From: Fasciolopsis buskii
Taxonomy: Eukaryota; Platyhelminthes; Trematoda; Plagiorchiida; Fasciolidae
Direction: 5' to 3'
Length of the DNA: 64,000 bases
NCBI GenBank assembly: GCA_008360955.1
Contig: LUCM01005836.1
Coordinates: forward strand, 1-64,000
Shown: positions 25,705-56,665 of the stretch, piece after piece
How the letters are laid out: every line of letters starts with the position of its first letter
Numbering within the stretch: the first letter of the stretch is position 1
The notes under the pieces: generated by a model
Told to the model about the DNA's origin: nothing
The model's database searches: none
What the model saw: only the letters and a program-made list of their open reading frames with translations
Program-made: the position numbers and the translations under genes

Positions 25705-28040
25705 CACGATTTCGGGCTGAAATGCAACATTATCATTTGAACGCAAAACGGCAAGCAATACGATGTAATACAACGTGCGTCTAGATCATCTGGGACATGT
25801 TACCTGCCGGTTCCAAAATTAGGTCCTGCCTGAAATTAGGGGGGGGGGGGTACCAAATAATGCTTAACGACTTGGGTATTGGCCAGTCGGTGGCACGCAG
25901 CGAGGAGGGTGCTAACGGGGCTATGGATGATGTGCACGTAAATCACTATCCAAGGAGTTAGTAAGGCAGAAATTCTTTAGTAACAGGCTAGTAAATATAA
26001 GGACTTGGCTGTCTGAAGATTCGGTATATGGAGCGCAGTTCCTTTTAGGAAGGCCCCGTGACGAAGGCGCCACGCGACGTTTCCCGAGTAAGCGCAACGC
26101 GCGCAAATTTTGGACAATTATTCGATTGTCTCTCACCATATTTCATTTTGAATGCGAAGGCCTGCCGCCCGCAGTATTACCACTAACTTTTCCTTTAGCA
26201 AGACCCATTAAGATGAGCTTGAAAGAAGTGAATGCTCATTTGCGGTTCACTGCATGGAAAGAATTTTGAACTCCCAAATGGCATGGACCAAAGCTTGCCA
26301 TCTGAGAAATGCACTGAATTTATTCACTCTCTTCCGCCGGAAGAAGCTGAGATGCCTCTAGCTGTAGAAACATAGGGGAGCAAGAAAGTAAGTGGTTCAA
26401 AAACCAGCTAATAAGATGTTGCGCTGGTAAGTCATGGAACAAAACTGATCTGGACTGAACTCTACCTGACCTGCATCGGCAATATATTTGAAGGCCACCT
26501 AGAGGGCTGTTCGGTTTCAAGAAAGCCTAGGGCATTAGAAAAACGACGGCTGCATTTTCGAAATTTTGTCACTTGGTTTGCCGTATTTTGCTTCACCATA
26601 CCCTCAAATATAAAAGCTGCAATTCGCAGAATCCTTAAACTTCACAGACTTTACTGACTCGTTGAGTTCTTCTGTTAAACATGTTCTGTGCGTGGGATGC
26701 TCTTGCATTGGAAGGAAACGTGCAGTTCCTGCAGCTAAGCTGATTACTTCAGACCTGTGATCTCCTTCGCAGGGACCGTTATTGACCGACTAATTATGGC
26801 TGGTATTATTCGTTCATGATGTCATTTGAGTTTCTAGACGAGAACCAGGATAGTGCAAGATTTGAAATGTTGGAAATTTTCAAGGAGTGCCAAATAAACA
26901 CATTAAGTCATGAGCGCTTATGTGTGCAGCTGAAGCGTCTGTATGATAAGGTGATCACCTATAATTTTGTTTCCTGTTAAAAATGTTTTTCAGCGTCAAT
27001 TTTTTCCGATTTACCTGACCGCTTGCTCTGTGTAGACAGTGCTGCGGGATTGCCGTGTGTTAAGCGCGTCCAACGCTGCGTTTTTCTACTTCAAAAATCG
27101 GTCCGTTTCTCGCTGCTCTGTTTGACATTCTTTTAGTCTGTGCTTAAGTCGCGCAATCTTTGTCAAAAAAGTCCATAAATTTCCCCAACAACTAAGAATT
27201 CTTGTTGTGGTTTATCACATTGAATTTTTCCTGGCAGAGTGGGTTCCCAGTGGCTTCCGCTGTCATACGTTTTTACGTCTGGTGTTTTTTTGCTGGTGTG
27301 AATTTGTGTCGTTTTCATTAGTGGCTGCCATTATCTAAGCCGAACTTTGGTCATGCCCCGAGTGTCGGAAAACTGCGGAAATCGCGCTGTCAACGGCGTT
27401 GCTAGCACTGTGTGGGAGCATTAGGCGGACGTGAAGTAATGTGGTATACCAACGGAGCTTTTCGCTGTTTATCGACAACATGAGTGGGTGGCGTGGATCT
27501 ACTGAAGGTGCAATATCGCCGCCAGACAGGCATACGAAATGACAATTTTCCGGGAGACTCACAAACAGTTAAGCTCATTTTGCAGGACTGAGTAGGCAGT
27601 ACCCTGCACACAAAAGAAAACGTACATACCCGGAGTGCTTTAAAGTCCGACAGTGAACATCGAAAACGTGATGCCAAAAGATGGGCAAGCTAGTAAAACG
27701 TAGGACCGAAGTTGTCGGCTGCCAGTTTCCATAACGAGGACAAATGTGCGAACTAGGTGCGCTAACAACCCGAAGGCAATTTAAACTGCAAACGTTGCAA
27801 TCGAGAGTAAATGAATGTACACATTTGCACCTATGCACATATGCACATATATATTTCTGTGTTTACGTACGTACATATGGCCAAAATTGAACCACCATCA
27901 CTTTTCTATCAGATTTATTCCGAATGCAGGTCAATCGTTACTAAATTACGATGATATTTTCCGCAAAATGACACGTTTATCAAGTCTGAGTTAGAAAGAT
28001 CCTCCGGCATCATCACGCCGCCAAAGTCACTGTGGAGAGC
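25705..28040. other. No recognisable gene
   Basis: Minus-strand frames of 75 to 91 codons at 27335-27838 overlap in three registers and show no family motif. A run of 12 G at 25839-25850 is the only notable simple repeat. No exon or RNA gene was recognised. Confidence 0.4.
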
Positions 28041-28044
28041 TCAA

Positions 28045-29472: not shown

Positions 29473-29473
29473 T

Positions 29474-29880: not shown

Positions 29881-29884
29881 TTGA

Positions 29885-32435
29885 AACTCAAGTGAGTTTC
29901 CGATGCTATCGGGGTCGTATTGACCATGTCTTTACCATGCTGTTAATTTTAGAATGGTTACGTTCCATCGTCGCAAGATCACTGTCTTCATTGGTGGTAA
30001 CGTGACATTCGATTCATGCGCAAAACATATCCCGTTCACCTTAACCTATTCTATGTACTGAACCCTGAGTCCTAGTGCCTTCCCCCGAGCCCTTGGTTTA
30101 CCTACAAAATTCTTCCACATTATACTACCAATAGTTCGAACGCGGCGCTGTTCAAACCGAAAGTGTTCTGGCACTTTTCCTCAACGGTCATGTTTTTGAG
30201 TCATGTAGCAGACGGTCGCACCTTAGATCGATAACCAAATGTCAGACCGACGGTACAGATGCCTTATCTTGGTGAATGTCAGTTGAGACTTTTGTATGCG
30301 CGAAGGCACTTCACCCGATATACAACTGCCTCTTGAAATACAATTATCCAGGTAAAAACTCATCTCTCCCACTCAACAGTTCCCTTGCTCCAACCGACGT
30401 AGAACATTGACTAGAGGGACCTTACTCTGAGCCTTTGACCAAATAGTCCAATCCCCAAGACATTAAAACGATCTGAGGATCGTGTAACCTAATGGGGACC
30501 GGTGAATGATTCCTCAGTTCATACAGTCTTTCGATGGAGTTGAGCATCCTGGATGTCTGGTATATCCTTCCACAGGCCGGGGAGTGTACAACTATACTTT
30601 GTACTGCGCCTATGGTTTTTTTGGAATCAGGGTTTAGCTATCTTCCCTAGACTGTTTACCAATGACCGATCAATCAGTAGACAGCCCCGGGCATTCCTCT
30701 TCGTCCTCGCTAACGGGAACTCCCACAAGGAAACAGCGAGTAGAGGTTCCGCGACAAAGTTCGTCTGGGAGGCTTAGTCATTTGAAAGCACTTAGTGGCG
30801 TTAAAAGCGAGTAGCCAACTCGGACCTTGACGCATCCCTGACCATGCTTAGGCATTTGGAGGAAAATACCTGGCCGTATTTCGCGTCAATTCACCATGAA
30901 TGTTAGTGTCCGCCAGGCTTACCACTCATCGTTTCTCTTCAACTTTGGAATTGAGATGACATGATGATTGCGTTATCCCCATATGAGATCAGTGACATCT
31001 ATACTTGTTCGCGCAGGCGATTAATCCAGATTATGAAGTTGCGCTTCTGGGCCAAGTTCTATTTAGAGGGTAAATATTTATCGGTCGTATGAACGACATT
31101 GTACCTGTGTGAGGAACTGTTTCAGGACTGGATTGCGTCAAAACTAAGCTGAGTTCTCGCAGAAGGACGGCGTCGCGAACCGGCAAACGAATATTAGTAG
31201 AGCAGAGAAAAGAGCCATTGGCTAAGCTTTAATCGACAGCAAATTAGGCATGCAGCCGAAATAAAGGAAATAATCACAACATTATTGTTTATGAAAAAGA
31301 TGAATTTGCATACGACAGATGATGATCTCCACCCATGAATTATAATCCGTGACGTTCAATTACTTGCAAAACTCCACGGATAGGTTGCGGTGGTTATGTC
31401 CAAACAAAGGAACACCAGGGGTATTGTGAGTATAAAAACATAAGCCTGCAGTGAGCCATGCTATTTATCAACAATGGATAGGGCACAAAGCACTATGAAA
31501 TAGGTTGTAGAAGTGGAGAATGATAAGGTCGCCGGTTCAACTTCGCTCACTATCAATCTAATTCCCCATTTGTCAGCCCTTAATTGACTGCAGTAGTCTT
31601 CTTAAAATGGTGTACACTGCTCATTGTTTAATAAAGGAAGTGAAGAAAAATACCAATGGGGACGATTTTGCATTATTCCCCTCGGTTTCTTGTAGTTTCT
31701 AGGAACGTCCTTGAGAATGTGAGTCTTGAAAGGTTTCTAGGTTGAAGCTGCGTGCCACCCGATGACGCAAAAAGACGGTCGGACGCGTTATTGCTGCCCT
31801 AAGAGATTTTCCGCGGGCGGTTTCCTGTGGACATCAGGGTCGTGGGAGACTTCGGCTAGTTTATCATCGGAAATACTCTGCGCAAAATTCAAAGGTAGCA
31901 ATTGAAAAACTACCGTAGAACTTAATTCAGGGACAGCCGTGTAGTTATCGCAAGCAGCAGGTGCCAAGTTTCATAACGAAACAATTTTTATGACAAACTG
32001 AGTCATACTCGAGCATAAATCTGGTCCAAGTCAAACAGTTTTGCCTCTTTGGCTAGAGGATCGTACTCGAGATATGGGTTCCGATCTTTCAGTAACACTC
32101 ACTTAGAATTCAGGGTTCCAACAGTGATACGACAGTTATGAAGAAATAAACATTCGTGGTGCGTTGCGTTCGTTGCCGCGCAAAGCAAAGAACGCATGGA
32201 GAGGAGTGCGTTGGGAAGATATGCTTCCCATCTTCGAATTTCGAGACATGGGCACTTCAGGGCCAGAGTGACGGATTTCCGAATCGTACCTATTACACTT
32301 CGGACGTGTCCACTGCACTGGGTTTGTACGCAGTATTACAACTGACAGCTATACCCTTTCCGTTGAAAAATGTGCGAAGTACTTCTGACATAAAAGTGCC
32401 GCGATCCGAATCATCATAATTGTCATCCAGCGTTA
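29885..32435. other. No recognisable gene
   Basis: Only short frames are present, the longest 87 codons at 32156-32419. No domain, RNA gene or clear repeat was recognised. Confidence 0.4.
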
Positions 32436-32439
32436 GACA

Positions 32440-33541
32440 GCAAGGTGAGCCTAATTGACCCCTGCCTTTTCCGCAGAGTTGCGTGTTTCTATAAAAGCAA
32501 TGAATATTCAAGGGGAACAGGGAATGGACCTACGCAGGCGGGAAACTATAAGAATGATGCAGTCGCCAACACACGGAACACATTCTAACTGTACAAATGC
32601 ACTCTTTCAGTCATTTAGACTGAATAGAAAATAACCACGATCGCCACTGTTCACGGTTCACTGCCATACCTTTCAACGTCTCCAGCCAGCCAGTTGACGA
32701 GTCTTTCAAACCCAAATCACGAAGACGTGAGACACCTACTTTACTTAAGTTTCCTGTTCATTTTCTCAATCTACTTTGTTACATCATCTGCTGACCTCCA
32801 CGTGGGCTCTTCCACTCCGCATCTGGAACGCAAAATAAGGCACGGTATGGTAGACGAGTGTTCGCCATACCCAACACGTGACCCAAACAGTGACGTCTAC
32901 TAAGTTTCATACGCTGAAACAAGGTATTCTCAGAATTGGCACCTAGTAATAGACACCTGACCTATACATTAATCACCTACCCACTCCATTCAATCCTAGC
33001 GAAACTACGTAGACATCGGTGATGGAAAACCTGCAAGCGACGAACATCTGCCGCACACATACTCCATGTCTCGCAACCGTACAACAGAACTGAGTGCACC
33101 GCGGCACAGTACACACGACCTTTCGTTTTCAGTGAGGTATCAGGCCGACGCCACAAGTGCTTAAGTCCAGCGTAAGCTGCTCGAGCCTTCGATATACATG
33201 TGTTTGCCTCCACAGCCGAGCAACCATCGCTCGGCAGGCAGTTGCCACTGTTAGTGGAACTCCGACCGTATGCGGACAGGCATACCAGAAGTGGTGAGCA
33301 AATAAAACTGTCAATAACAAAGGATGTAGAAATACTGGAACAGTGAAAGGCAAAGAAAGTGTTGGAATTCGTCAGTGATTGTGAGCAAGAACATACTGCG
33401 TGTGACAAATGGTAGTCATCCTTTGAGGTTCCAGTTGAGTCCCTCTTAGGACTAGGTCACCTTCGGAGTGGTACATATGGTGATTTGAAAGACTGATTTC
33501 ATTCCCACACAAATTTGACAGCGGAGTATCATGCCTTTTAC
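32440..33541 (-). mobile_element. Family R LINE (RTE-like) 3' fragment, minus strand
   Basis: The minus frame 33408-32977 (143 codons) contains CISKARAAYAGLKHLWRRPD, then GRVYCAAVHSVLLYGCETW and RRLQVFHHRCLRSFARIEW. This is the region after the RT thumb in fluke RTE-like elements. The final part (about 32,900-32,690) carries the usual GHVL...LPY and EWKSPRGGQQM segment with frameshifts. The 3' noncoding tail runs to about 32,440 (rc of GGCAGG...GGGTCAATTAGG). EN and RT are absent. The segment 32727-33541 is nearly identical, inverted, to 52825-53639. Below 32727 the two diverge. Confidence 0.85.
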
Positions 33542-33677
33542 TTCTTTGGTAGAAAACGGGAGGTTAACCTCCGGACAAAATGAAGCACAAGCGACTTGGG
33601 CGTGGCGTAAGGGCGCATAGGGTCTGTGTAAATCGAGGGATCCGGAAGTGAATGCATAAACATGTCAAGATAGGGCA

Positions 33678-36183
33678 TCATCTAGTGTTGTCACTTCTTT
33701 TTAGGTTGACGGTGTCGTACCGAAGTGTAGTTTCAGGCGTCATCGTTGCATCCTTTTTGATGTTACTCCTCCATTGGTTTCCAGACATGAATATCGTCGG
33801 CCGTTGATCCGTCACTGGCCAAAAGTGGTTATCAGTCGGAAATTGGTGCCGCTTTTTCAACGCCTTTCTTTTCCACTACAGAATATCGCTTCTCGATGGG
33901 AGTCAGGATTCCAGAGAAAAAACCACCGGTGTATCCTTCTGAATGAAGTTAGCCATAGTTGCAATGTTTGATGCACCGGGTTCATTGGTTACCTTCAGCT
34001 CGTTTTCTAGCTCGTATACTGGTTCAAAACAATCTGCAACGAACGCAGACAACAGGAGTATACGGTTTGTAGTAAGCGAATTTATTAAAAAAAATACATT
34101 TTTACTGCCCACGCCTGTGTATTAAGATCTCAGCGAGGGATAGCTGTTTGGAAAGTTCTAACCTTTCAGGATCTGGTCTAAGAAGATCCTTCGAGACTTC
34201 GAATCCCGAAATCTTCATTGTGCTCACAAACATTATACTTTTTGTTAAATAGTATTTCATTGATAGGAATCGATGCAAGTTCTGGTCATGTATCTCAGAT
34301 TCGTGATCGCAGATCATAATGTAATCAACATAGGCAAAAACGCCTAGCAGCCGTTTCTTATTACTTATATCATCCATCATTCCTTAGAAGCATGTGACGT
34401 GATTGATAACGCTGACAGGTGTGCGACAAAACTGGTGCGGAGCCCTGTAAGCCTAAAACGCAGTATACTTTCCTTCTTCCATTCTAGTGGGAATCTGATG
34501 GTAAGGGCTCTTTGAATCGAGCGCATTAAGTATCTCGTACTTAACTTTTCGAGGTCAATTGGTCCTCTCTTCTCATTACTATATTTTGCATGCGGATGGA
34601 TGAACAAGATTTTCCCGAAAGTACATGACAGGTTTCGTGGTTATTGCCGCTCTTCAGATATGCGTACCCGGTATTCTTCTGTCCAACCATCTCTATATTA
34701 GTGTAGTACTTTTGTAGTTTCTCACTAGGTTTTCATTTGAATCGTTAGGAGTGTGAATGGATGATAAGTGCGTTCAAGAATCACATCGTGATTCGTCCAT
34801 TGGTTCTTTATTGAAAAGAAATATTCACCCGGGGAGCTGTATCAAGTTATAGTTTGACTGTGGTCGGTAACCATGTCTTTTTGCGGCATCCGTTGGATGT
34901 TTTTAGCACTTGAGCTCTCCATTGAAGGGTCAGTAATACGTGCACCTAACCGTTTCGGTGTTGCTGTTCAAGTGAATAACTTGCCTTGCGCCGGATGCTG
35001 CCGGGGCTTTGTGGCTGTGGGCTGACAATTCGGCACTAAGTATTCATAAGGAGACTGAAGCATTGATTGCGCAGCAGCGAGACCACAGATGGAGGACGCA
35101 GATTTGTCCGTTTCAGAAGTATCTCCATCGGTTTGTGGCCAAGCAGTGCGTCGGTGCACAGCCTCGCTGTCACGAATAGTTTGCCGCGTTTAGCAATGAT
35201 TTCTTTGTTTGTGGTTGCAACAATGATGCCCGCGTTCGATGCTTGTTAACGATGTGGACGCCATCGTAATACGAATTTGGGGTGGTTCAACTTTCCAGCG
35301 ATGTTTCTGAATGGGGTCGTGGGATATATAGCTTACTGAGCAGCCTGTGTTGATGAAGCAGATGAAGCAGCGGGACTTTTTTCACGTTGACCGGGTAACT
35401 GCTTTTGGACAAGCAGTACGGAGAAGCAGCAAACAATTCCGATGTCAGAGTAAAATGCGAAGCGAATGCAACTCATCTATTAGCCGTTGATGCTCGACGT
35501 AGCTTTTGATGATGTCCCTTTTTACCACAGCCCTTGCACGTAGCGTCCCAAGCAGGGTATTTCTGCCGAGTATGGCAACCAAAACCGCAAAAATAACAGA
35601 GCGTCGCCAGTGGTGCAGACGGGATCTTCAACCTCTTCGGTATTATGCGGGCTTGCCATATCGTCAGGTCCGTTGGAACAAGATGTTATTGTCACGCTAT
35701 TCCGATTAGCTAGTGTTTTTTTGGCAACGTCCTGTGTTTTCGATAACTCAAAGGCTCTCTGTAGGTCAAATTTTCTTTTCGAGAAGCCTGTGGCCTGTGG
35801 TCAGACTGTACCCTGAGTGTGAATGCATCTGAAACTAGCCCCTAGCAGTGCACTTACGTTGAAACAGGTTTACAATCGCAGTCTTTAACCAGATGCAATA
35901 ACTGCTCCGGAAAGTGATCGAGACTCCATCCTCTTGGATAGTAGCTGGTAAGACTTGTCTGAATAAAATTGAGCTTTTCCGCTTATTACAGCGATGGTCA
36001 AAAGCTTGAACGACACCTTCAAAAGTGACATTCTCTAACGTATTGATAAACACGGAGCCAAAAATTGATTAGTGTTTAATTATTGGGATTTAAGGCCTCG
36101 ATAGTGAAGAGAGTCCAGTGATCCACAGCGCCTGGGGAATTAGGGTCAACATCGAATCTTCCCGATATGAGGTCCTCGTCCAT
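33678..36183 (-). mobile_element. Ty3/gypsy LTR retrotransposon (Mag/Gulliver-like), gag-PR-RT-RNH remnant
   Basis: The minus strand shows a gag start ATG at 36183-36181 (MDEDLISGRFDVDPNSPGA). Gag continues as VTFEGVVQAFDHRCNKRKS (about 36,030). A zinc knuckle follows, CKGCGKKGHHQK near 35,550-35,515. The protease reads INTGCSVSYIS around 35,360, where the active site should be DTG, so the catalytic Asp is Asn. LCTDALLGHKP lies near 35,140 and PQPQSPGSIRR/CQPTATKPRQ near 35,010. RT is frameshifted at 34,610-34,100 (LGVFAYVDYIMICDHES, with YVDD changed to YVDY; ISGFEVSKDLLRPDPERL). RNase H follows to 33,680 (NHFWPVTDQRPTIFMSGN). The order is collinear for one element. Integrase and LTRs were not found. 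Many stops make it inactive. Confidence 0.8.
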
Positions 36184-36189
36184 TTTGAT

Positions 36190-36780
36190 GGTTAGTCTAT
36201 TAAGTTGTGAATCCGCAAACCTACCGGAATAAAGCTGAAATGAAAAAGCTTCTGAATAAGTTTTAATCGATTAACCAATTCGGACGTACGACTAGAATAA
36301 TGGAATTTATGTGTGAAAGCGAAGAATCTGAATGCGGCAGACGATGAACTTCCCATATGATTTACAGCCTCTAAAAATGAATGTTTGAAATGGAGAAGGC
36401 TTCAAGCGCACATTTGCAACCCGCCAGCTGATGGTATTTCAAATGATTTTTTTTATCAAATATGCGGAAACTGAATGGCGTTTACCGACTTGAAACATTT
36501 GTAGTGTATCACTTTCGTATCGACCAGTGGGATCACGCAAAACGTCGCGGGAACTAGTGGTTCCATAGGTTTATCTGATGACGGGTCTGGTCGATTTAGA
36601 CACCGAGTGGTCTCATACCGACGAAGGAATCAAGGATTCCCAAGGTGACCAATGAATTCAATGTGGAAAGAGGCAGAAGCGCTCATGTGGTGAACTATAC
36701 ACATTGTTTTTTTCTTTACTCCTACCCGCTCATTGTTTTCATTCGCCTTGGTTCCAGTTGAATATAGTCTTTATTTAGAT
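36190..36780. other. No recognisable gene
   Basis: This lies between the gag start of the gypsy element and a LINE fragment. It may contain the element's 5' leader. A (T)n stretch lies near 36,447. No coding feature is supported. Confidence 0.35.
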
Positions 36781-36782
36781 TT

Positions 36783-37580
36783 GTGCAGAATATATGCAAT
36801 CTATACAGTAGTTATCGAGGAGGAAGTAATTTGGACGCATTACTTAGGCCTAAATGTTCACTTCATTGGGCCCCCTTCGATTCCCGCACTTTGGGCCAGA
36901 CAGGGCAACAAGCTATCTTAGCAAGGACTCTTGAAACTTTTAGAATGTATATTGCGTCTCCGAAACGTGCATACAAGGTCAGGCTATGAGGTGCGAATAC
37001 GGCGTCTCGCTTCACTCTTCGCATTCTAGGTGATTTTGTTCCGAGCCCTAATGCTCAGGCCGATATTAGGATTTCTCAGAACGTGCAGTTCGAACGTGTA
37101 TTGTTGGACTGTGTCTCAGTCAACAGTCGTTTGTATGCAGATCAATTGAACGGTTCTGCATGTGTCAATAACAGTCGACTGAGGCGTCGTTATCTCTTCA
37201 TCGTATCTGTACATGCGCCTAGTGGTTGTAGCTCTCCTGAAATGAAAGATTAGTTCTACCGAGACTTGTCCTGGTTATTTCGAAGTGTGCGTTCAACAGA
37301 CGTTGTGGTCGTTGCTGATAATTTTAATGCCTAACTTGGCTAATTCATCGGCGTAAAACGGTGTATTGGAGACCCTGTTTCTAGCTCCACTGGTCGCACC
37401 GACATCGGTAACCACCTCACTCGAGTTTATTCTGGCCACAGACTGTCTCTGGTGAATACGATTTTTTTCATAAAAAGCGACTTTGTTCAACCTGGCATCC
37501 TCCCTCGTCTTCACATTGTAGAACTAATATCGATCACATTGCCATTGCAGATTGCTGATAATTGTATTCCACACCTGTGG
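36783..37580 (+). mobile_element. Family R LINE (RTE-like) endonuclease domain fragment
   Basis: Plus-strand frames follow APE endonuclease order. FDSRTLGQTGQQAILARTLE at 36,876-36,935 corresponds to FNVRTL..GQQ.. near the N-terminus. DCVSVNSRLYADQLNGS lies at 37,110-37,160. RRRYLFIVSVHAPSGCSSPE at 37,180-37,240 holds the usual YAP as HAP. RSVRSTDVVVVADNFNA follows at 37,280-37,330, where GDFN has become DNFN, so the active-site region is altered. A further stretch matches the cleavage loop (HRLSLVNT, near 37,440). It ends near 37,560 before the H of the SDH motif. RT does not follow in this orientation. Confidence 0.8.
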
Positions 37581-37639
37581 ACTCAATTCATCCTTTCGTT
37601 GAAGGTCGCCTCTGTTTGCTCTTAGTCATTCTGATTTGA

Positions 37640-38890
37640 CAGGACTTGACAGCACGATCTCCACTGTTCATGGTTTACTGCCATGTTCTTCAGTGGTCGA
37701 TCGACCTTCCGGATCCCAAACATGAAGACTCGAAACACCCTTAAGTTTGCTGTGCCACGTCATCCGTTGACTTCCACTATGTTTCTTATATTCCTTGGGG
37801 AGAATGAAAGATAAGGTACGCAACGCATGGTCCAGCCAACGAGCTGGATATTCTATCAAAATATGTTCTGAACCAGCATTCCATACTAGCTTCCAAATGC
37901 CTTAGTATGGTCAGGAATGAGTGTCTGAGGCTCCGGATCGGCTATTCGAGCCCTGAACACCTCAAGAAATGGTCCTAAATAACTAGCGTATCACATAGCC
38001 TCTGCTGAGGATGTTCTCCACTGCCTTCCCGTGGCAGATGTGTTCCTACCGAAGTGTGAGGATGAGAGCGAACCGCCGGTGCCTTCCACCGGGTTGAACG
38101 GATTTCGGTTAAAGCCTGATTCCAAACTATCTCCATGCAACCTACAAAGCGTACGGCAGTACGCACACTGGGATCTGTGAAAGAGGGGTATACTGGAGAT
38201 CCGAGATGTCTGGTCGCATCCGATCGGCGACTGAACTGAATAATCAGTCACCGGACCCTCAGATCATTTTAATGTCTTGTAGTTTGGACCATTAGGTCAG
38301 AGGCTCGGAGTAAGGTCCCTTTAGTCAACCTTCCACTTTGGTTTGGTCAGCTGTCTGGTATCAAGCTCATTGAAGAATGATGGATCCCCGTAGGTTGCCG
38401 AAGACGTAGAGGTGGGAAAAGGAAGAAATAACATGCATAATGAACTGGGCACTTTGTTTTTCTTCCCTCTTCCCCGCCCATTGTTTTCATTCTTCGCCGT
38501 GGTGGCATATGATCTGTATTCAAATTTATGCAAAATTTAGTATATATGAACAACCTACATATTGCTTTCGCGGTCACTCCGTGCAATCCTGAGGATAATA
38601 CGCGAAAGTCGAAGCTGAGCTGGTAGTTATCCTCAGCACACAAACCCTGTACTTCACAGGATACAACAGAACCGAGCGTATACCGGCAAATCACAAGTAC
38701 TTCAGGCCAGTATACACCGCTCGAGTGATGAAGGTACTACGCTCACCTATCAAACCCTGCTGCGGTCCTCGGTGAAGCAGATGCCGCAGTATATGAAGCG
38801 CTCTACAGTGATTAGTTCCTCGCGCTTCATTACTAATTTCCATACTGCTGCCTCGTGAACGCACAGTTGCGGCAGGAATCAAACTTACAG
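37640..38890 (-). mobile_element. Family R LINE C-terminal and 3' end remnants, minus strand
   Basis: On the minus strand ITRAVYTGLKYL and IRSVLLYPVKY at 38,730-38,640 recall the ARAAYAGLKHLW...RSVLLYGCETW block, with the motif damaged. At 37,860-37,650 HSGSQRMTWHSKLKGVSS and GRSTTEEHGSKP match the final C-terminal segment, followed by the start of the 3' tail (CATGAACAGTGGAGATCGTG). The middle (38,000-38,550) is not readable. This may be one decayed element or two pieces. Confidence 0.6.
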
Positions 38891-38927
38891 TTATCTAATT
38901 AGGATGCAAAGAATTGCCGACCACGTC

Positions 38928-40583
38928 GCAGCAGTTTCACGACAGTTTACAAGGAAGCGCTTGGGAAGGAAAGCCAACCACACGTATGGTGCTGTCGCTG
39001 TTTTTCCGTGGTCGATTATTCAATGAACATGGTTTGCTCTGTTCAGGATTGACCCCCAGTTTGAAGATCAACCTCCCACCAGTCACTCATGATCGCGCCA
39101 GGTCACATGAAACTATTCCCCAAAGTTCTTGCCAGTGTGAAACCTTTTTCAGCATTTTTAGTTTGGTTTGTTTCAGAGCGCTTGTACGTCAATACGCTTC
39201 ATTGATTTATCCCAAACCAAATTGTTCGGCCTGTCATCTTAGTGTTGAAATAAATGCTAGATATCTGGGCTTCACCTAAGTACTCGAACCACATCAGCTA
39301 TGTGAATGACAGGCCAGATTTCTTCAAAGTCGAGGCTGCATCGACCAGATTTTCACTCTTCGGAAGGTACTCGGGCGAAGTCGTGTGCCTGTTCGAATCC
39401 GCGGACCATGCGCAACGTGCACTGGACAAACTCTCGAGGGCTACAGCTCTATTTGGCATGTGCTTTGCACCTTCAACGTGTAAAGTGCTGTTGCAGGACT
39501 GGACGACGTTAGTACTGAACTTGATTCGCAATGGAGAAGAACTAACGGTTGTAGACCGTTTCGGCTGCTTTGGCAGCTGCGTGTCGAAGGATGGTAACAC
39601 GGGATTGATACATGCGACACATTTGTTAATCAAATTTAGTTTCGGCCGGCCAATTGATCTAGGCACGTAAACCAGCGTTGGACGTGGATTGGTGCTCATG
39701 GGTACTGCGTGCTGAGTTACTGCTGCTCACTGACCGAAAATTCTAATACGAGTGTCAAATTCTACCACAGAATGGATTTACTACGTTGTTTGATTGCCTG
39801 TACCGAGATATAACAGGGTGGCATTTCATCAAAATAGTTAACCCATAGCAGAGCATGGTGGGGGTGAGCACACGAATATCCTAGGCTCGAGCTACGTACG
39901 CTAAACTGAAGCATTTGTGGCATCGGCCTGATATTTCCTTGAAGTTGGAAAGTCGTGTTTACTGTGCCGCAGTGCACTCGGTTCTGTTATACGATTGCGA
40001 GGGGAAGATGTTCGTCGCCTGGAGGTTTTCGATCATCGATGTCTGTGTAGTATCGCGAAGAGTGGACGGACTGATCGCGAGAGCAATGCGCTTGTTACGA
40101 ATCTAGTATTAAGTGCCGATTCTGAGAACACTATCTCAGCGCATGAATCCCAGTAAACCACGTTGGTTGGGTCACGTGTTGCGTAAGGCGGATACTCGTC
40201 TACCATACCGCACCCTATTTTGTGTTACTCTCACAGAGTGGAAGAACTCATGTGGAGGTCAGCGGATGACGTGGCAAACTTAGATAAAGTAGATTTCTCA
40301 AGTCTTCGTAGTTGGGGCCCGAAAGACCCGTCGACTAGCTGGCTGGAGATACTGACGAACATGGCAGTGAACCGTGAACAGTGACGACCGTGTTGTCATT
40401 TTCTGTCGAATCAGAACAATTGAAGAAGTGCATTTTCACAATTAGATTGTAATTCATGTGTTAGCTACTGTGACACCTCTTTTCCCGTCGGTGTATGTCC
40501 ACCTCCTGTTCTGCCTGCATATTTACTCTTTCTATAGGAATAAGCAACTTTGGGGAAAAGGCAAGGGTCAGTGTCGTTTGTCC
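38928..40583 (+). repeat. Left arm of a 1.66 kb inverted repeat; internally deleted family R LINE
   Basis: Base i pairs with 83244 - i in 42661-44316. The arms look essentially identical by eye apart from a few changes at the outermost 30 bases and one near 40570. The first 350 bases are not LINE coding. From about 39,310 a frameshifted SRGCIDQIFTLRKVL (RT) jumps straight to VVCLFESADHAQRALDKLS, so the RT palm with its YADD motif is deleted. GKELTVVDRF-type and KHLWHRPDISLKLESRVYC segments, a decayed LLYDCE block, the C-terminal GHVLRKADTRLPYRTLF region and the 3' tail follow to 40583. It is non-autonomous. Confidence 0.9.
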
Positions 40584-41445
40584 TTTCGTTTAACTTTGAT
40601 TAACAGTGACAACGGCCTAGAAACGTTCTTGCTCATCAATATCGTCTGTCTTATTTCGTTATTATTTTTTAGATTTTTATCACTTCGTAATAGAGTATTC
40701 GAACACAATCCAGAATTAGTTGAGTTTATTTTGCGTTTGTTCTATGTTTTTGTATCTAGTTTACCGGTACTCTGATTAATCAGAATACCAACTTTTGTTA
40801 TGCTTTGAGTATCACTTCTGCTGCATCTGCGACGTAATAGAATGGGATTAGATTTTCGCACGCTGCATTATTTTGTTAGCTCTGGATCCTGTGGAATGTT
40901 GATTTTTATCGATGACATCCATGAAACTGGTATCCTTTTAGGATCTTATCGCGCCGATGCAAAGCAGAGAATCCTGACTTTCGATCACGGTAACTACAGT
41001 TTAACTACCGGAAATTTGTCGGCTTTTCAAAATTCTGAGATAACATAAAATAACTTCCAATGGTAAGGTAGTAAAAAAAGCCGAACAGAATGGTGTTAAG
41101 CTAGTGATGACGTAATAAGCGTCAAATGATTTTTTCCGGTATTAGGTGGACAGAAGATACTTCGTGTCACTGATGGTGCTCTGCTTAGAGATATTTTATT
41201 TACTAATTATCCTCCTTTATGGATGTCGGCAGATACTTTTATTTCCTAAGCCATAATTCCCTGCATCTGTAATGAGGTTATCTTCAATAGTCCCTTTTCA
41301 CGGTTGCGTGTCTTGTCGATGGCAGTCGAAATAGGCTCGCAACTTAAATGTTGTTTGCAGTCTCGTAAAAACGAATCGACAAACCAATGTGTCATTGTTC
41401 ATTTCTTCAGATAGGCTATTGCCCTTCTATTTGTTCTTTTTTCAG
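40584..41445. other. Spacer upstream of the CAP-G exon; no exon recognised
   Basis: This part of the inverted-repeat loop is AT-rich, intron-like sequence. A 68-codon frame at 40842-41048 is followed by a possible donor (cacg/gtaact near 40,989), but its translation does not resemble the CAP-G N-terminus. The preceding coding exon may lie upstream of the whole repeat. Confidence 0.4.
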
Positions 41446-41649
41446 TCTCGGTTCGTATACTTCGCAGACGAGTTCTTCGAACTTTGCCGCTACAGTCTGG
41501 TCTCCAGCGAGCGTTCTCCCTACCGTGAGCGAACAATCGATTTTATCACAAAGTTCGCTCTTTTCTGTGGAAAATCCGATGCGAATGACGAAACAAGCGA
41601 TACACTGAACAACCGGTTACTTTTGAAATTGTTTCTTTTCTGTGTGAAG
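41446..41649 (+). CDS. NCAPG: CAP-G (condensin I subunit) exon a, N-terminal HEAT region
   Basis: CAP-G is the HEAT-repeat subunit of condensin I. It helps compact and segregate mitotic chromosomes by binding DNA together with the kleisin CAP-H. This 204-base, 68-codon exon has a strong acceptor (ttctttttt cag at 41443-41445) and a donor (aag/gtattg at 41650), phase 0 at both ends. The translation has FADEFFELCRYSLVSSE, ERTIDFITKFALF, an acidic DANDETSD loop and LLLKLFLFCVK. These align in order with the vertebrate block around residues 45-110 (a VFHEEF...LKY, ERVIEF..KF, acidic loop, LLNYLFTFLLK pattern). No stop is present. The exon sits in the loop of a near-perfect 1.66 kb inverted repeat. 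Assignment is by remembered family pattern together with the three exons downstream. Confidence 0.9.
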
Positions 41650-42660
41650 GTATTGTTTTTTAACTACTAACCTTATCTTGCAATCGTTGTCAACCGTTCA
41701 AACTTTTTCTTGCAATTGTCAAATGTCTCCTTGTTTGAATATATATATATATATATATGTATATAAGGGCCCATTTCATCGGGCGCAGTATTGATGAGTA
41801 GCCGCGAATAAGATGGGTCCAAGCCCACTAAATAAGCGGGTGCGGTCAAGCAGCGGAATTATCGAGGTGAGGGTGGGTTTTCGCTTAGAAAATCATCTTG
41901 CCAAAGCGTGCCAGAAATCTGGTGTTGCCACTAAGGCGTGGAGGGCACTATCTACCAGATAATTGAAGCCATCAGCCATGGTCCTGTTCCACTCATCCGT
42001 GAAGCATTTCCGTAGGAGGCACGTGAACCGAATCGTTGACTTGACTGGAACAAATCTACTGTCTAATAGATCTTCCACGGTTACACAACAGTTGAATAAA
42101 CAAGCCTACTCTGGATTGGACGACGGAGTAGTACAACAGCTCATGGAACGACTATGGCACCGGACAACCGATAATTTGATGAATGAATCCGGAAGAGCTG
42201 ACAAGTGTGATGAACTCTACACAAGCATCCGTTTTTCCTTTTCATTTACTCATTGTTTGTGATTTTTCAGCATTGTCCCAATGAGACAAATTAGCACGAT
42301 TGAGTAGATGCATCCCGTAGCCCTTAGGACTCATCGCACTGAAGAGAAGAGCGAAAATCATGAAGAAACATGAAATTATATTAGATCTCAACAGATTATT
42401 TGACAGCGAATTACCACTTTCGTGTTCTGGCATGGATAAGCATATTTAAATCCATCGGGAACTGATTTCACACATTCAATAACTGAACATCAGAAGTAGC
42501 TCTACGGAGGTTTCCCGGTTGTTTTCTTTAGTAAACATGATATCAGCGAATACCGTCTTCTCCACGACTTCCCCTGAGAATGGGCTAAGACGTAGGAAAG
42601 CGCAGTACTTAAGTAATAATTAATGTGCGGTTCCTTACCGTCATTCAGTGTTAAATACCA
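41650..42660. other. Intronic spacer with (AT)n
   Basis: This is the beginning of the 4.2 kb CAP-G intron. It contains an (AT)n run (about 41,739-41,758) and a 99-codon plus frame at 41963-42262 with no recognised relative. It ends at the right arm of the inverted repeat. Confidence 0.5.
41739..41758. repeat. (AT)n microsatellite
   Basis: About ten AT units are followed by gtatataa. It lies 90 bases after the donor of the CAP-G exon. Confidence 0.9.
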
Positions 42661-44316
42661 GGACAAGCGACACTGACCCTTGCCTTTTCCCCAAAGTTGC
42701 TTATTCCTATAGAAAGAGTAAATATGCAGGCAGAACAGGAGGTGGACATACACCGACGGGAAAAGAGGTGTCACAGTAGCTAACACATGAATTACAATCT
42801 AATTGTGAAAATGCACTTCTTCAATTGTTCTGATTCGACAGAAAATGACAACACGGTCGTCACTGTTCACGGTTCACTGCCATGTTCGTCAGTATCTCCA
42901 GCCAGCTAGTCGACGGGTCTTTCGGGCCCCAACTACGAAGACTTGAGAAATCTACTTTATCTAAGTTTGCCACGTCATCCGCTGACCTCCACATGAGTTC
43001 TTCCACTCTGTGAGAGTAACACAAAATAGGGTGCGGTATGGTAGACGAGTATCCGCCTTACGCAACACGTGACCCAACCAACGTGGTTTACTGGGATTCA
43101 TGCGCTGAGATAGTGTTCTCAGAATCGGCACTTAATACTAGATTCGTAACAAGCGCATTGCTCTCGCGATCAGTCCGTCCACTCTTCGCGATACTACACA
43201 GACATCGATGATCGAAAACCTCCAGGCGACGAACATCTTCCCCTCGCAATCGTATAACAGAACCGAGTGCACTGCGGCACAGTAAACACGACTTTCCAAC
43301 TTCAAGGAAATATCAGGCCGATGCCACAAATGCTTCAGTTTAGCGTACGTAGCTCGAGCCTAGGATATTCGTGTGCTCACCCCCACCATGCTCTGCTATG
43401 GGTTAACTATTTTGATGAAATGCCACCCTGTTATATCTCGGTACAGGCAATCAAACAACGTAGTAAATCCATTCTGTGGTAGAATTTGACACTCGTATTA
43501 GAATTTTCGGTCAGTGAGCAGCAGTAACTCAGCACGCAGTACCCATGAGCACCAATCCACGTCCAACGCTGGTTTACGTGCCTAGATCAATTGGCCGGCC
43601 GAAACTAAATTTGATTAACAAATGTGTCGCATGTATCAATCCCGTGTTACCATCCTTCGACACGCAGCTGCCAAAGCAGCCGAAACGGTCTACAACCGTT
43701 AGTTCTTCTCCATTGCGAATCAAGTTCAGTACTAACGTCGTCCAGTCCTGCAACAGCACTTTACACGTTGAAGGTGCAAAGCACATGCCAAATAGAGCTG
43801 TAGCCCTCGAGAGTTTGTCCAGTGCACGTTGCGCATGGTCCGCGGATTCGAACAGGCACACGACTTCGCCCGAGTACCTTCCGAAGAGTGAAAATCTGGT
43901 CGATGCAGCCTCGACTTTGAAGAAATCTGGCCTGTCATTCACATAGCTGATGTGGTTCGAGTACTTAGGTGAAGCCCAGATATCTAGCATTTATTTCAAC
44001 ACTAAGATGACAGGCCGAACAATTTGGTTTGGGATAAATCAATGAAGCGTATTGACGTACAAGCGCTCTGAAACAAACCAAACTAAAAATGCTGAAAAAG
44101 GTTTCACACTGGCAAGAACTTTGGGGAATAGTTTCATGTGACCTGGCGCGATCATGAGTGACTGGTGGGAGGTTGATCTTCAAACTGGGGGTCAATCCTG
44201 AACAGAGCAAACCATGTTCATTGAATAATCGACCACGGAAAAACAGCGACAGCACCATACGTGTGGTTGACTTTCCTTCCCAAGCGCTTCCTTGTAAACT
44301 GCCGTGAAGCTGCTTG
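42661..44316 (-). repeat. Right arm of the 1.66 kb inverted repeat; internally deleted family R LINE
   Basis: This is the mirror copy of 38928-40583 (base i pairs with 83244 - i), lying within the intron between the first two CAP-G exons found. It has the same LINE fragment with the same RT palm deletion and the same 350 noncoding bases at its outer end. Both the inner (42661) and outer (about 44316) limits correspond exactly to those of the left arm. No target-site duplication was evident by eye. Confidence 0.9.
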
Positions 44317-44319
44317 CGA

Positions 44320-44695
44320 GCAGTCTAATACGAAAGCAGGTCTATGGCCGGTCTGACTATCTCGAGGGCCATTTCGGTTATGGCTGTATCGAGGGATGGA
44401 TTTGCAGTACCGCAATTGCACAGCAATATGTTGCTGAGCGATGGGAACTCTTTGGAAATATATGCCTGGGGAATAATGAGGGATTATGTGCGCAATTTGT
44501 GAAGCTTGTCCCCGTTGTCTGTTCGTTGGTTACGCAAGGCTCAATATTCACCTGTACTGCATCATGATGCACTGCGTTTTCGCTTTTGTGACTTAAAGTC
44601 ATGCGCCACCGCTGCAGTGTCGGAGTGTTTGCTTCTGTGAACAGTAGCGACGAGTTTGTCATAAATGTCTTTTTGCATGGTAACGTTGCAGCCTG
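44320..44695. other. Intronic sequence, nothing recognised
   Basis: Overlapping frames on both strands (44304-44567 plus, 44378-44662 minus) lack recognisable motifs. Confidence 0.4.
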
Positions 44696-44699
44696 TTTT

Positions 44700-45453
44700 A
44701 GGCCTATAATTAGTTGACTAGTAATTTGGGCTTAATACGGCTATCCTTGCAAAGGTAGACTGGTTCCTGTATTCTTACGACGCATAAGCGACCGTTAACC
44801 GGGATCCAATCTTGCAGGTCTGCTTTAGCCTTCTCATTTAACCCTTCCTATTCCGCGTTGACCCGGAGCTTGAGCTGCTTCGTCTCCGGAAACGTGCAGG
44901 AAACATTTGGCGAGACATTATTCATAGTTAGTTGAATTATTCTGCTACACGAATCCTGGGTTCCTATTTCACTTACGCAGCAGTCGTCGATCAGACGTGA
45001 GCCCGTCGTCAAAGCTGAACATATCTGATGGCCATCCAGCCTTAGAGTACACACATTGAAGAAACCGAGTTTCAGAGGCTGACAAGGCCCTAGAAAACAT
45101 GACCTAGCAGACTGAAAGCCATTTACTATACTATTTGACAACCTGCAGTTATCGTGGGGGCGCAATGGGTAGGCGGAGCGATCAAAGAGGGCGTTTGGGG
45201 ACATAAGACAGCATGAATAAAAAGGAAGCAACTCTGAACACATGGAAAGTTTCTCAAATCTTCTGTCTATAACGGTCAAATTTCGGAACCGTTTACCAGT
45301 GTCGATCTCACTGCTGTCACGTATGCTCCACCTTTGGTTGAGGATCGGATACCGCGCCGACTCCACAAATGTCTTACTTTGGGGAAAGCAATCCAATCTC
45401 TTGCATGGGTGATGATATTTCACCCAGTATATGCCCATCAGCTCGTTTATCAA
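44700..45453 (-). mobile_element. Family R LINE 5' region and endonuclease N-terminus, minus strand
   Basis: The 201-codon minus frame (45453-44848) enters EN at about 45,075 with LKLGFFNVCTLRLDGHQICS. It continues with DDCCVSEIGTQDS, the position of the DVCCVSETRIQD block that carries a catalytic Glu, here followed by I. Beyond a break near 44,850 the minus strand resumes with ADLQDWIPVNGRLCVVRI at 44,795-44,745, the next EN block. The upstream half of the frame (45,450-45,090) includes a sequence repeated at 46.4 and 60.9 kb and is probably the element's 5' leader. RT is not present on the same side, so this is a 3' truncated or rearranged copy. Confidence 0.8.
45240..45365 (-). repeat. Inverted repeat arm upstream of the CAP-G second exon (pairs with 46373-46498)
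   Basis: The minus strand (cagtgagatcgacactggta and onwards) matches 46,415-46,498 on the plus strand with substitutions. Base i pairs roughly with 91738 - i. I estimate about 80 percent identity. It belongs to the leader of the family R element. A related sequence lies at 60,880-60,960. Confidence 0.7.
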
Positions 45454-45856
45454 AGTATTTCAGCAGATTCGTTTCGGTAATTCGATGGAATGACATGGTG
45501 AATATCATACCAAGCTAAAGAAACTTCTAAGATCCAATGTTCCTTCGCTAATTCTCTTACAGTCTGTGTGAATCTTTAAATCCATGTCTAACTGATACTT
45601 CCTTCAATTGGCCGTAGTTTTTTGAATTCTGGCTGGGATTAGACGGGTTTGGTTTGGGCGAGATTCTCATCTCCCATGCTCAGTTGTCCTAAATGAACTT
45701 ATGATTATCTAATAATATCGTGTGCTGTGGAAACAGTCGTTCATTGGGTCACGTCTAGAGGGTTTCGAGTTTATTTCCATTTTTAGATTTCTATTCTTAT
45801 CACCCAACTTTCCGCAATGATAGTTTTCTGCAATCCCCTGATCAATACTTTCACAG

Positions 45857-46006
45857 TACAACGAGTGCCCCAATCCAGCGGTACGTTTCCGTTGCATGCA
45901 AATCATTCAAAAACTGCTGGAAGGAATTGGTGATAATGGAGTGATGCCGGACGAATTGTACACCAGTTTGCAAAGTGTTCTGCTTCGCCGCGTACAAGAT
46001 ACCAAA
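45857..46006 (+). CDS. NCAPG: CAP-G (condensin I subunit) exon b
   Basis: The 150-base exon encodes 50 residues in phase 0, with acceptor tttcacag (ends 45856) and donor accaaa/gtaagt (46007). It reads YNECPNPAVRFRCMQIIQKL, then a short acidic loop, MPDELYTSLQSVLLRRVQDT and K. It joins exon a in frame, so ...FLFCVK runs into YNECPNPAVRFRC, exactly as vertebrate CAP-G runs from the FLLK helix through a short linker into an AVRFRV helix. The repeat that follows (DELYTSLQSVLLRRVQD) corresponds to a DVFDKINKAMLIRLKD pattern in human CAP-G. Skipping the exon would keep the frame. The ORF is too short to be noticed without the splice context. Confidence 0.9.
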
Positions 46007-47601: not shown

Positions 47602-47963
47602 ATCATCATCGTTCAGCCTTAAACAGCAAGGCAGGCCCCACTGACCGCCGCCTCTTCCACAAAGGCAAATGTTTCTAAAAAGAGTGGAAATCCAAGGGGA
47701 ACAGGGAGTGGACCTGCACGCACAGGAAAAGATCAGATGCCGAAGCGGAAAACACACGGATCACAGTCTAACTGTACAAACGCACCTTCTCAATCATTTT
47801 GATTCGTTAAAAAATGACAACACGATCGCCACTGTTCACGGTTCACTGCCATATCCTTCAGTGTCTCCGGCCAGCTAGCTAGTTGATGGGTCTTCCGAAC
47901 CCCAATCACGAGGACGTGAGACACCTACTTTACTTAAGTTTCTTGTTCATTTTCTCAATCATT
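47602..47963 (-). mobile_element. Family R LINE 3' end, inverted twin of 53592-53953
   Basis: This minus-strand 3' noncoding tail begins (5' on plus) with atcatcatcgttcagcc, the complement of the terminal GATGATGAT. Base i pairs with 101555 - i in 53592-53953. The two are identical in all parts I compared apart from one base near 47942 (cttg against cctg). Similarity ends abruptly at 47963 (aatc/atttt). Confidence 0.9.
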
Positions 47964-50659: not shown

Positions 50660-52820
50660 CCTCGCTAGCCTGTGAATCTCGTTTCCTTCAGTTTGCGCAC
50701 TTTGATGCAGGCTGGCCAACAGACGTGTTTGGCCCTGACAGTGGACTCACTTTCGATTGATGTCTGCTGCGTCAGTGAAACGCGAATTCGTGATTCAAGC
50801 AGAATAATTCAACTAACTGCGCCAAATGTCTCATCAGGATATTTGCTTCCCAATTCAGGAGACGAAGTAGTTCAAGTTGGGGCTGAACGCCAGCTTAGAC
50901 CAACCTCCAAACTAAAGGATCAGATTTACTTCGTCGGCCATCTACTCATTAGAGTTCCGGGAATGACTGAATCTTCGGCTTGAGATGAGTCGCCCTGTTA
51001 TAGCGCGTCGGACCACTGAAGCTGTCACAACCCGAGCGATGGCTTGCGTACGGGAAGAACAGTTGTATTAAACGTAAATTATATGTCATCTCGACATACG
51101 CCCCAACAGCCTACAGCACTGACACGCAAAAAACGAGTTGTATGACGAATTCGTAACTTTTGTTCGAAAGAACAAAGGTTCTGATATTGCAGTGGTAGCA
51201 GAGATAGGCTTCTCCAGTTTTGTGCAGCCAATCGTTTGTTCTTGTCTGGTGCGAATCTTCGACACAATTTGCGTTTCACAGCGGCATGGTGCTCTAACTC
51301 GACGGGTAATCTGAGGCAGATCGACCGTATCGCGGTAGGCTAACGTTGGCGCGGTTCTGTCCAGAACTGTAGATCGTACTGGACCACGTACCTCGAGTCG
51401 GACCGTGCGTTAGTTTCAATGCGAGTTTTGCTGCAGCTCAACGGCCGTCGACGCAGGCCACAAACCCGACTGGCCGTCGAAAGTCTGTCTGGTTCGGCTG
51501 TTCGCAACAGCTATGAGCAGAAACTGTCCTAGGAATTAAGCACTTTGTTGACCAGCAATGTAGACGAGCAGTGGGATCAAATTCAGCAGGCGATGCATTT
51601 GGCAGCAGATTTCGCCTGTTACGCTAGATCTAGCTTTCATCAACGACACTGAATCTCGCAAGGGTCGCTGGATTTGAAGGGGTAGCAGTCAAAGACTGTT
51701 GAAGCTTATACTCGACAGCGTTGGGCGGCGAACTTCGGTTAGTGAAGTCGTGTGCGATATGAATGGAGGAGTCATCCATGGTAGACAACAAGGACTGATC
51801 CGTTGGGCAGAGCACTTCAAGGATCAGTTTAGCTGACCACTCGCTGACCTATTTTGTCTGTCGTCTGGAGCTGCAAATCCTTGGGAGGTGTCACTTGATC
51901 CCCCAACGGAAGTGGAAGTGCAGTCCAATATTCAGCTTCTGCAGAGTTGAAAAGCAGTCGGTCCCGACGACCTTCCTCCAGTTCTTTTCAAACTTGGTGG
52001 GGATGCTCTAGTGAAATCACTTACCTCCTTGCTTCGTGATATTTGGGTCTAGGAACGTATTCCGTTATCGTGGAGTGAGTCATTGATTGTACTCATTTTC
52101 AAGAAGGGCAATCGGAGTGACTGCGGCAATCATCGGGTATTAGTTTTATTCCGATAGTTACAAAGGTGTTAGCTTCGATAATGCTACTTTGTTTGACACC
52201 GATTCGCGAGAGTAATATCCGCGAACAACAAGCCGGATTTCGGCCAGGTCGAGGTTGCATCGACCAAATATTCACTCTTCGACAGGTACTCGAAACGCGC
52301 CACACGCAACGCCGCCCTACGATCGTAGTCTTCCTCGACTTGAAAGGTGCTTTCGACTCCGTGGATCGACCGGCACTACTCAGTGCTCTCCACCGGAAGG
52401 GTATGCCAACTAAAATTGTGAACCTGTTGCGAGCATTGTATTGGCCTGCCTTTGGTCGCGTTAGGGTACACTGTGATTTGTTACGTTCATTCGAAACGGC
52501 TAGTGGCGTTCGACAAGGGTATCCCATCTCCATTCTTTTTAAAATTCGTTATGGACGAGGTGATGGAAGATGCTTTAGGAGGTCTCCGGGATGTAGAAGT
52601 CGAACTGGGAAGTGGAGGAAAGCTATACGACCTAGATTACGCAGACGACGTCGTGTGCCTGTTCGAGTCTGCGGACCATGTACAACGGGCACTAGGTGGA
52701 CTGTCGAGATCGGTTGCTCGGTTTGGCATGTGCTTTGCACCTCCAAAGTGCAAAATACTGTTACAGGACTAAACGACAGCAGCGCCGAATTGGATACTGG
52801 ATGAAGAGGAACTAACGATT
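50660..52820 (+). mobile_element. Family R LINE (RTE-like): EN start, linker and well-preserved RT
   Basis: The plus strand starts EN at 50,690 (FSLRTLMQAGQQTCLALTVD, then DVCCVSETRIRDSSRIIQL with the catalytic E). It passes through a decayed EN body, then the linker (RQQGLIRWAEHFKDQFS near 51,785; AVGPDDLPPVLFKLGGDALV near 51,957). RT reads LIVLIFKKGNRSDCGNH (about 52,086), QAGFRPGRGCIDQIF (52,230), FLDLKGAFDSVDRPALLSAL (52,330; motif A Asp kept), ASGVRQGYPIS (52,500), one frameshift near 52,535, and LDYADDVVCLFESADH with intact YADD at 52638-52649, then FAPPKCKILLQD. After a stop near 52,770 ELTI follows at 52,811-52,820. There the frame meets a GTAAGT sequence and family coding sequence resumes only at 53,119. 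Confidence 0.9.
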
Positions 52821-56355: not shown

Positions 56356-56665
56356 TCCACCGTTCGCGTGCAAGCCATACATGCATTGTCCCGCATGCAG
56401 GACCCGACCGATGCAGAATGCCGAGCTGTGGAAACATTCCTGTGGCTTGCCCGCCACGATCCCACCGCCGATGTTCGGAGAGCGGCTTTAGCAGCCATGG
56501 TGTTAACTACGCGCACACTGCCAAGCCTTATCGAGCGTTGCCGTGATGTATCCGACAGTGTTCGTCGCACGGCCTACAAGATACTGGCTACGCGTGGTGT
56601 TCTTCGTCCGCTTTCTATCGCTAAACGTATCCGAGTCCTGCAAGATGGTCTCACTGATCGATCAG
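56356..56665 (+). CDS. NCAPG: CAP-G (condensin I subunit) exon c, HEAT repeats
   Basis: The 310-base exon begins in phase 0 after cttactag and ends with atcag/gtaagt (donor at 56666), leaving one base for the next codon. Translation starts STVRVQAIHALSRMQDPTD and continues ECRAVETFLWLARHDPTADV, RRAALAAMVLTTRTLPSLIE, RCRDVSDSVRRTAYKILATR, GVLRPLSIAKRIRVLQDGLT and DRS. The pattern VRxQAxxALSRxQDP...DEC, followed by PxVRRAxLxxxxxxxxTLP, RxxDVxxxVRxxAYxxL and LSIAxRxxxLQxGLxDRS, is the best-conserved part of the CAP-G HEAT array. It joins exon b as ...LLRRVQDTK/STVRVQA, like RLKDKIPNVRIQA in human CAP-G. This is the strongest evidence for the gene's identity. Confidence 0.97.

What the first reader, a model, noticed from the sequence alone, without database searches (positions are those of the whole stretch)
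38928..44316. CAP-G exon in the loop of a near-perfect 1.66 kb inverted repeat
The 204-base exon at 41446-41649 lies almost at the centre of symmetry (41622) of two arms that look essentially identical (38928-40583, 42661-44316). If both arms are intronic, the pre-mRNA could form a very long duplex around this exon. Long complementary intronic repeats are known to favour exon circularisation, exon skipping or editing. The exon is phase 0/0, so skipping would remove 68 residues in frame. The right arm is certainly in the intron. The left arm is intronic only if the previous exon lies upstream of 38.9 kb, which I could not show.
Basis: partly seen in the sequence, partly recalled or inferred. 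Interest (0 to 1): 0.8.

Follow-up and report, generated by a model that had tools for sequence, protein, structure and literature searches.

The report
Giant intronic hairpin around fluke exon
In the genome of an intestinal fluke, one small exon of a chromosome-condensing gene sits between two almost identical, oppositely oriented 1.66-kb stretches of old transposon-containing DNA, a layout that in other animals can make an exon form a circle or be skipped; whether it does so here has not been tested.

Summary
Arms 38930-40584 and 42660-44314 are reverse complements over 1655 bp without gaps and with 4 mismatches; the inner 1602 bp are identical. Both arms are therefore intronic (introns of 14,495 and 4,207 nt), and no coding exon is supported between left arm and exon 2. 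The host is inferred to be Fasciolopsis buskii. The arms carry an old broken non-LTR retrotransposon fragment; among scored matches the full arm occurs only at these two places. So one old insertion was later copied or homogenised. Mismatches cluster at arm ends here and in a second fluke inverted repeat, but not in two others examined; this fits, without proving, arm-to-arm gene conversion. Random placement would enclose an exon about 29% of the time, so the layout is no sign of selection. Back-splicing or in-frame skipping of exon 2 is a sound prediction from known rules, but no RNA evidence was available. New member of a known kind.

The parts
26816..26950 (+). CAP-G coding exon 1 (ends LYDK, phase 0, donor gtgatc)
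   Evidence: 8 of 8 flatworm N-termini have their best window hit here, E 4e-12 to 1.6e-6; borders
38930..40584 (+). left arm of the inverted repeat, in intron 1
39309..40573 (+). old non-LTR retrotransposon fragment in the left arm (broken by an insert at about 39602-39857)
   Evidence: matches to window copies and genome copies (query 382-446, 450-680, 931-1646)
39602..39857 (+). 256-bp insert with a 95% copy at C1623:124614-124869
41446..41649 (+). CAP-G exon 2 (68 codons, phase 0/0), in the loop
42660..44314 (-). right arm of the inverted repeat, in intron 2
45857..46006 (+). CAP-G exon 3 (50 codons)
56356..56665 (+). CAP-G exon 4

Best explanation
A genuine inverted duplication inside the CAP-G (condensin subunit 3) gene of Fasciolopsis buskii, one arm in intron 1 and one in intron 2. 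An old broken non-LTR retrotransposon fragment plus about 380 bp beside it exists twice in opposite orientation. Most likely arm-to-arm gene conversion keeps the 1.6-kb cores identical and leaves diverged rims; a single very recent copying event is the next best reading. In the pre-mRNA the arms can pair into a very long hairpin that brings the acceptor and donor of exon 2 together within a 2.1-kb loop. By the rules known in nematodes and mammals this should raise back-splicing of exon 2 (a 204-nt circle) and in-frame skipping of exon 2 (68 residues), most likely as low-level by-products rather than a selected function. SHOWN: the repeat, arm identity, intron positions (by homology), retrotransposon content, end-clustering of mismatches. 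INFERRED: gene conversion, duplex formation in the cell, back-splicing and skipping.
For: Arms 1655 bp, 4 mismatches, core 0/1602. Exon 1 at 26816-26950; 24 of 50 homologues have an exon 1 match, all 24 also have exon 2, 23 of them colinear and 1 (P0045, a cestode) with about 10 extra residues between. Among the 76 scored genome matches only the two arms span the full query; the others are partial, 70-87% identical apart from one 256-bp piece at 95% (40 of 9676 first-look candidates scored). 3 of 4 mismatches lie within 14 bp of an arm end; C6620 repeat: 4 of 6. Outer rim 3/45 against core 0/1602, Fisher p 1.9e-5. Fold: 1652/1655 mirror pairs. Of 24 inverted pairs listed in the contig it is the only one around exon 2 alone and the strongest around exon 2. 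Precedents: intronic complementary matches promote both back-splicing and skipping in C. elegans (PMC8330042, abstract and one results section); circRNA loci are associated with young transposons (PMC8516420, abstract and one section); 2636 circRNAs in Schistosoma japonicum as cited in a review (PMC13029200, section read).
Against: No RNA data. Two other near-identical inverted pairs of the contig show no end-clustering (1 of 6 mismatches within 14 bp of an end; 1 of 3). The rim borders were drawn at the mismatches, so the Fisher p is optimistic. Similarity past the inner edge is weak (p 0.01) and absent past the outer edge (p 0.51); longer flanks show none. The left tail alone is not significantly like the retrotransposon end (p 0.28-0.50) while the right one partly is (p 0.008-0.10), which also suits a recent copy of the right arm into intron 1. 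In the cell, fast splicing and helicases may keep the arms from pairing.
Confidence: 0.55

Rival explanations
1. A single very recent inverted copy: the right arm was copied into intron 1 by template switching or break repair, with no later gene conversion; the repeat is young and without function.
For: Near-identity; with the rate 1.73e-9 per site per year quoted in PMC8519440 (passage) 4/1655 gives 0.70 Myr and 0/1602 an upper limit of 0.54 Myr. The retrotransposon end is recognisable past the edge only on the right (p 0.008-0.10 against 0.28-0.50 on the left), as if the left arm were the copy.
Against: 3 of 4 mismatches sit within 14 bp of an arm end, which plain ageing after one clean copying event does not explain.
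Confidence: 0.27
2. Assembly artefact: one arm was wrongly placed a second time.
For: This assembly holds near-exact direct copies on both sides of N runs, four such pairs in the stretches looked at.
Against: The repeat touches no N run, has a non-repeated 2.1-kb loop, mismatches near the arm ends and diverged flanks. A missed-hairpin read would give arms without such a loop (established knowledge, recalled).
Confidence: 0.12
3. A DNA transposon with very long terminal inverted repeats.
For: Long, near-identical inverted ends.
Against: No target-site duplication beyond two out-of-register 6-mers; the loop holds a conserved CAP-G exon; no further copy of the outer 380 bp among scored matches.
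Confidence: 0.02

Closest known systems
Reverse complementary matches in introns flanking circularised exons, e.g. zip-2 of C. elegans (PMC8330042)
   Same: Complementary sequences in the introns on both sides of an exon; expected to promote both back-splicing and skipping.
   Different: The zip-2 matches are 7 and 13 nt and were tested by deletion; here the arms are 1655 bp and no RNA was tested.
Transposon pairs around circRNA exons in mammals (PMC8516420)
   Same: Transposon-derived complementary pairs in flanking introns.
   Different: There the pairs are mostly young separate insertions; here one old insertion lies inside a near-identical inverted duplication that also includes about 380 bp of other DNA.
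Long nearly perfect inverted repeats of Caenorhabditis, actively maintained (PMC1803023; abstract and passages)
   Same: Long near-perfect arms; gene conversion proposed as the cause.
   Different: Those lie in and between paralogous gene pairs and are shown across three species; this one is intronic, flanks one exon, and no relative's intron DNA could be compared.

Membership tests
circRNA-promoting intronic complementary pair | complementary sequences in both introns that flank the exon | tested here: met
   arms in introns 1 and 2, intron positions by homology
circRNA-promoting intronic complementary pair | a circular RNA joining 41649 to 41446 | not testable with these tools
   no RNA reads held
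circRNA-promoting intronic complementary pair | loss of circle or skipped product when one arm is removed | not testable with these tools
   needs an experiment
gene-conversion-maintained inverted repeat | near-identical core with differences confined to the ends of homology | tested here: met
   3 of 4 mismatches within 14 bp of an arm end and core 0/1602; seen in 2 of 4 near-identical inverted pairs examined
gene-conversion-maintained inverted repeat | repeat shared with related species, arms more alike within than between species | not testable with these tools
   no relative's genome held for this window (statement)
DNA transposon with long terminal inverted repeats | target-site duplication at the outer ends | tested here: not met
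   only two out-of-register 6-mers
DNA transposon with long terminal inverted repeats | several genomic copies with the same ends | tested here: inconclusive
   no third copy of the outer part, but only 40 of 9676 candidates were scored; the separate query for it did not complete
two independent retrotransposon insertions in opposite orientation | arms differ about as much from each other as from other copies | tested here: not met
   arms 99.8% alike, other genome copies 70-87%
gap-adjacent assembly duplication | copies abut a run of N | tested here: not met

The most novel reading that the evidence does not exclude
The hairpin is old, kept near-perfect by arm-to-arm gene conversion since before Fasciola and Fasciolopsis parted, and it steadily diverts a share of CAP-G transcripts into an exon 2 circle and an in-frame isoform lacking 68 residues of the N-terminal part, so that condensin supply is set by a self-renewing intronic duplex.
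Probability: 0.06. Interest if true: 0.65.

Novelty: new member of a known kind. Interest (0 to 1): 0.33.

Why it matters
If the duplex forms, it is an extreme natural test of intron pairing: arms over a hundred times longer than the 7- and 13-nt matches of nematode zip-2, around one in-frame exon of a core mitotic gene. It would show how far intron pairing can go before normal splicing suffers, and it offers a checkable case of inverted-repeat homogenisation in flukes. The search also places the N-terminal exons that the deposited F. buskii protein model lacks.

Tried and rejected
Rejected: it matches 0 of 50 homologues at E 1e-3, and homologues join exon 1 to exon 2 directly.

Insertion signatures: no target-site duplication for either arm; two out-of-register 6-mers for the whole. 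Extended homology in longer flanks: none (p 0.90 and 0.47).

Editing: the deaminase domain of ADAR (PF02137) gave no match in the genome, but no control genome gave one either, so this says nothing. Paper search ADAR + RNA editing + schistosom: 20 papers, 8 listed, none to the point by title. Flatworm + circRNA + introns + inverted repeats: 0 papers in the held library. Circular RNA + trematode: 26 papers, 15 listed, none on intron pairing by title.

Uniqueness of the outer 380 bp: its own genome query (window 38850-39300) was sent 13 times and never answered. It therefore rests (40 of 9676 candidates scored) and on a local search of the 344,536 bases then held. Queries for the 256-bp insert, the loop (72) and PF00035 (73) were also unanswered.

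Frequency of such repeats: the sample is small: contig C3447 (113 kb), 200 kb of C1078 (0 inverted pairs of at least 150 bp and 93%), and 9 kb of C6620 chosen because an inverted pair showed; C3447 gave 9 inverted rows, several of them one repeat.

Full report
Observation. The two segments align as reverse complements over 1655 bp without gaps, 38930-40584 against 42660-44314, with mismatches only at 38935, 38942, 38974 and 40577 (also found). The core of 1602 bp is identical. The loop, 40585-42659, is 2075 nt and holds exon 2, 861 nt from the left arm and 1010 nt from the right arm.

Host and gene. CAP-G exons led to flatworm homologues. P0008, named Condensin complex subunit 3 of Fasciolopsis buskii, is 100% identical over the stretch it shares (57% of the query) and comes from a contig of 113,103 bp; the window's own contig C3447 is 113,103 bp. 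The window is therefore taken to be F. buskii, by inference. P0008 aligns from exon 3 (45896) to 113087 near the end of the contig; it starts inside exon 3 and lacks exons 1 and 2.

Is the left arm intronic? The N-termini of 8 flatworm homologues all have their best window hit at about 26834-26953 (E 4e-12 to 1.6e-6). The frame ends LYDK at a phase-0 border followed by gtgatc, a GT donor but not a strong one. F. gigantica and F. hepatica read ..SLYDKSRFTHFADEFFELC... Of 50 homologues fetched match exons 1 and 2 (23 colinear; one cestode protein has about 10 extra residues), 8 match exon 2 without exon 1, 10 match exon 3 only (8 of them fungal, 2 fluke models cut at the N-terminus, P0008 and P0030), and 8 match none at E 1e-3; none has exons 1 and 3 without 2. 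Hence the left arm is in intron 1 (26951-41445) and the right arm in intron 2 (41650-45856). This is homology evidence, not transcript evidence; an untranslated upstream exon cannot be excluded.

What the arms are. The left arm carries, in sense, segments of a non-LTR retrotransposon with other copies in the window at 69-83% identity and in the genome at 70-87%; a reverse transcriptase domain lies in the window copy at 52166-52804. A 256-bp insert has one 95% copy on another contig. About 380 bp at the outer end matched nothing else, with the limit that 40 of 9676 candidates were scored. Both arms share all of this, so the retrotransposon inserted once, long ago, and the pair arose by later copying or was homogenised later. 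Elsewhere the family looks recently active: 47604-47960 and 53595-53951 are 99.7% identical.

Why the arms are identical. Three of four mismatches lie within 14 bp of an arm end; for the outer 45 bp against the core, Fisher p is 1.9e-5, optimistic because the rim was drawn at the mismatches. Past the inner edge 14 of 23 bases still match (gapped shuffles p 0.01); past the outer edge there is no similarity (p 0.51). A second N-free inverted repeat, C6620:484300-488926, has 1.6-kb arms with 4 of 6 mismatches within 14 bp of an end in one alignment (BLAST counts 8 mismatches and 3 gaps over 1632 bp). Two other pairs show 1 of 6 and 1 of 3. Diverged rims round an identical core are what gene conversion leaves when it cannot reach the ends of homology; that is my inference. 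A recent copy of the right arm into intron 1 remains open, since the retrotransposon end is recognisable only on the right. With the rate 1.73e-9 per site per year quoted in PMC8519440, 4/1655 gives 0.70 Myr and 0/1602 an upper limit of 0.54 Myr.

Artefact check. Four near-exact direct pairs in the stretches looked at lie on both sides of N runs and look artefactual. The repeat studied here touches no N run. Without reads an artefact cannot be excluded.

RNA consequences. A minimum-energy fold of 38800-44450 (-4034 kcal/mol) pairs 1652 of 1655 left-arm bases with the mirror base; this follows from the sequence and says nothing of kinetics. Of 24 inverted pairs listed in the contig, this is the only one around exon 2 alone; a 93% pair of 1.1 kb, 19 kb apart, encloses exons 2 and 3. 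In C. elegans, deletion of such intronic matches reduced both the circle and the skipped product (PMC8330042), and a review reports circRNAs in S. japonicum (PMC13029200). Hence the prediction of a 204-nt exon 2 circle and an in-frame skipped mRNA. The same repeat placed at random with intronic arms in this gene would enclose an exon in 29% of cases, so the layout is no evidence of selection.

Verdict. Observation confirmed, the key gap closed by homology, mechanism inferred, RNA outcome untested: a strong example of a known kind.

Noticed in passing
window 26816-26950, 41446-41649, 45857-46006: The deposited F. buskii CAP-G protein (P0008) lacks exons 1 and 2 and the start of exon 3, which the window holds.
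   Followed up: yes
window 28051-28397 and 29528-29877: Another near-identical inverted pair (about 350 bp, 98-99%), both arms inside CAP-G intron 1.
   Followed up: partly
window 32428-33543 and 52823-53941: A 93% inverted pair of retrotransposon copies, 1.1 kb, enclosing CAP-G exons 2 and 3.
   Followed up: no
window 47604-47960 and 53595-53951: Two 99.7% identical inverted 3' ends of the non-LTR retrotransposon, suggesting recent activity of the family.
   Followed up: no
C3447:59052-62765 and 88888-92601 (first arm in the window): A 3.7-kb inverted pair at 99.8% around CAP-G exons 6-9; the right arm abuts an N run and parts recur on the contig.
   Followed up: partly
C3447:91672-94101 and 100624-102892: 100% identical direct copies on either side of N runs, probably assembly artefacts.
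   Followed up: partly
L014 2301-3929 and 5296-6927 (C6620:484300-488926): An N-free inverted repeat with 1.6-kb arms, a retrotransposon fragment inside, and mismatches clustered at arm ends.
   Followed up: partly
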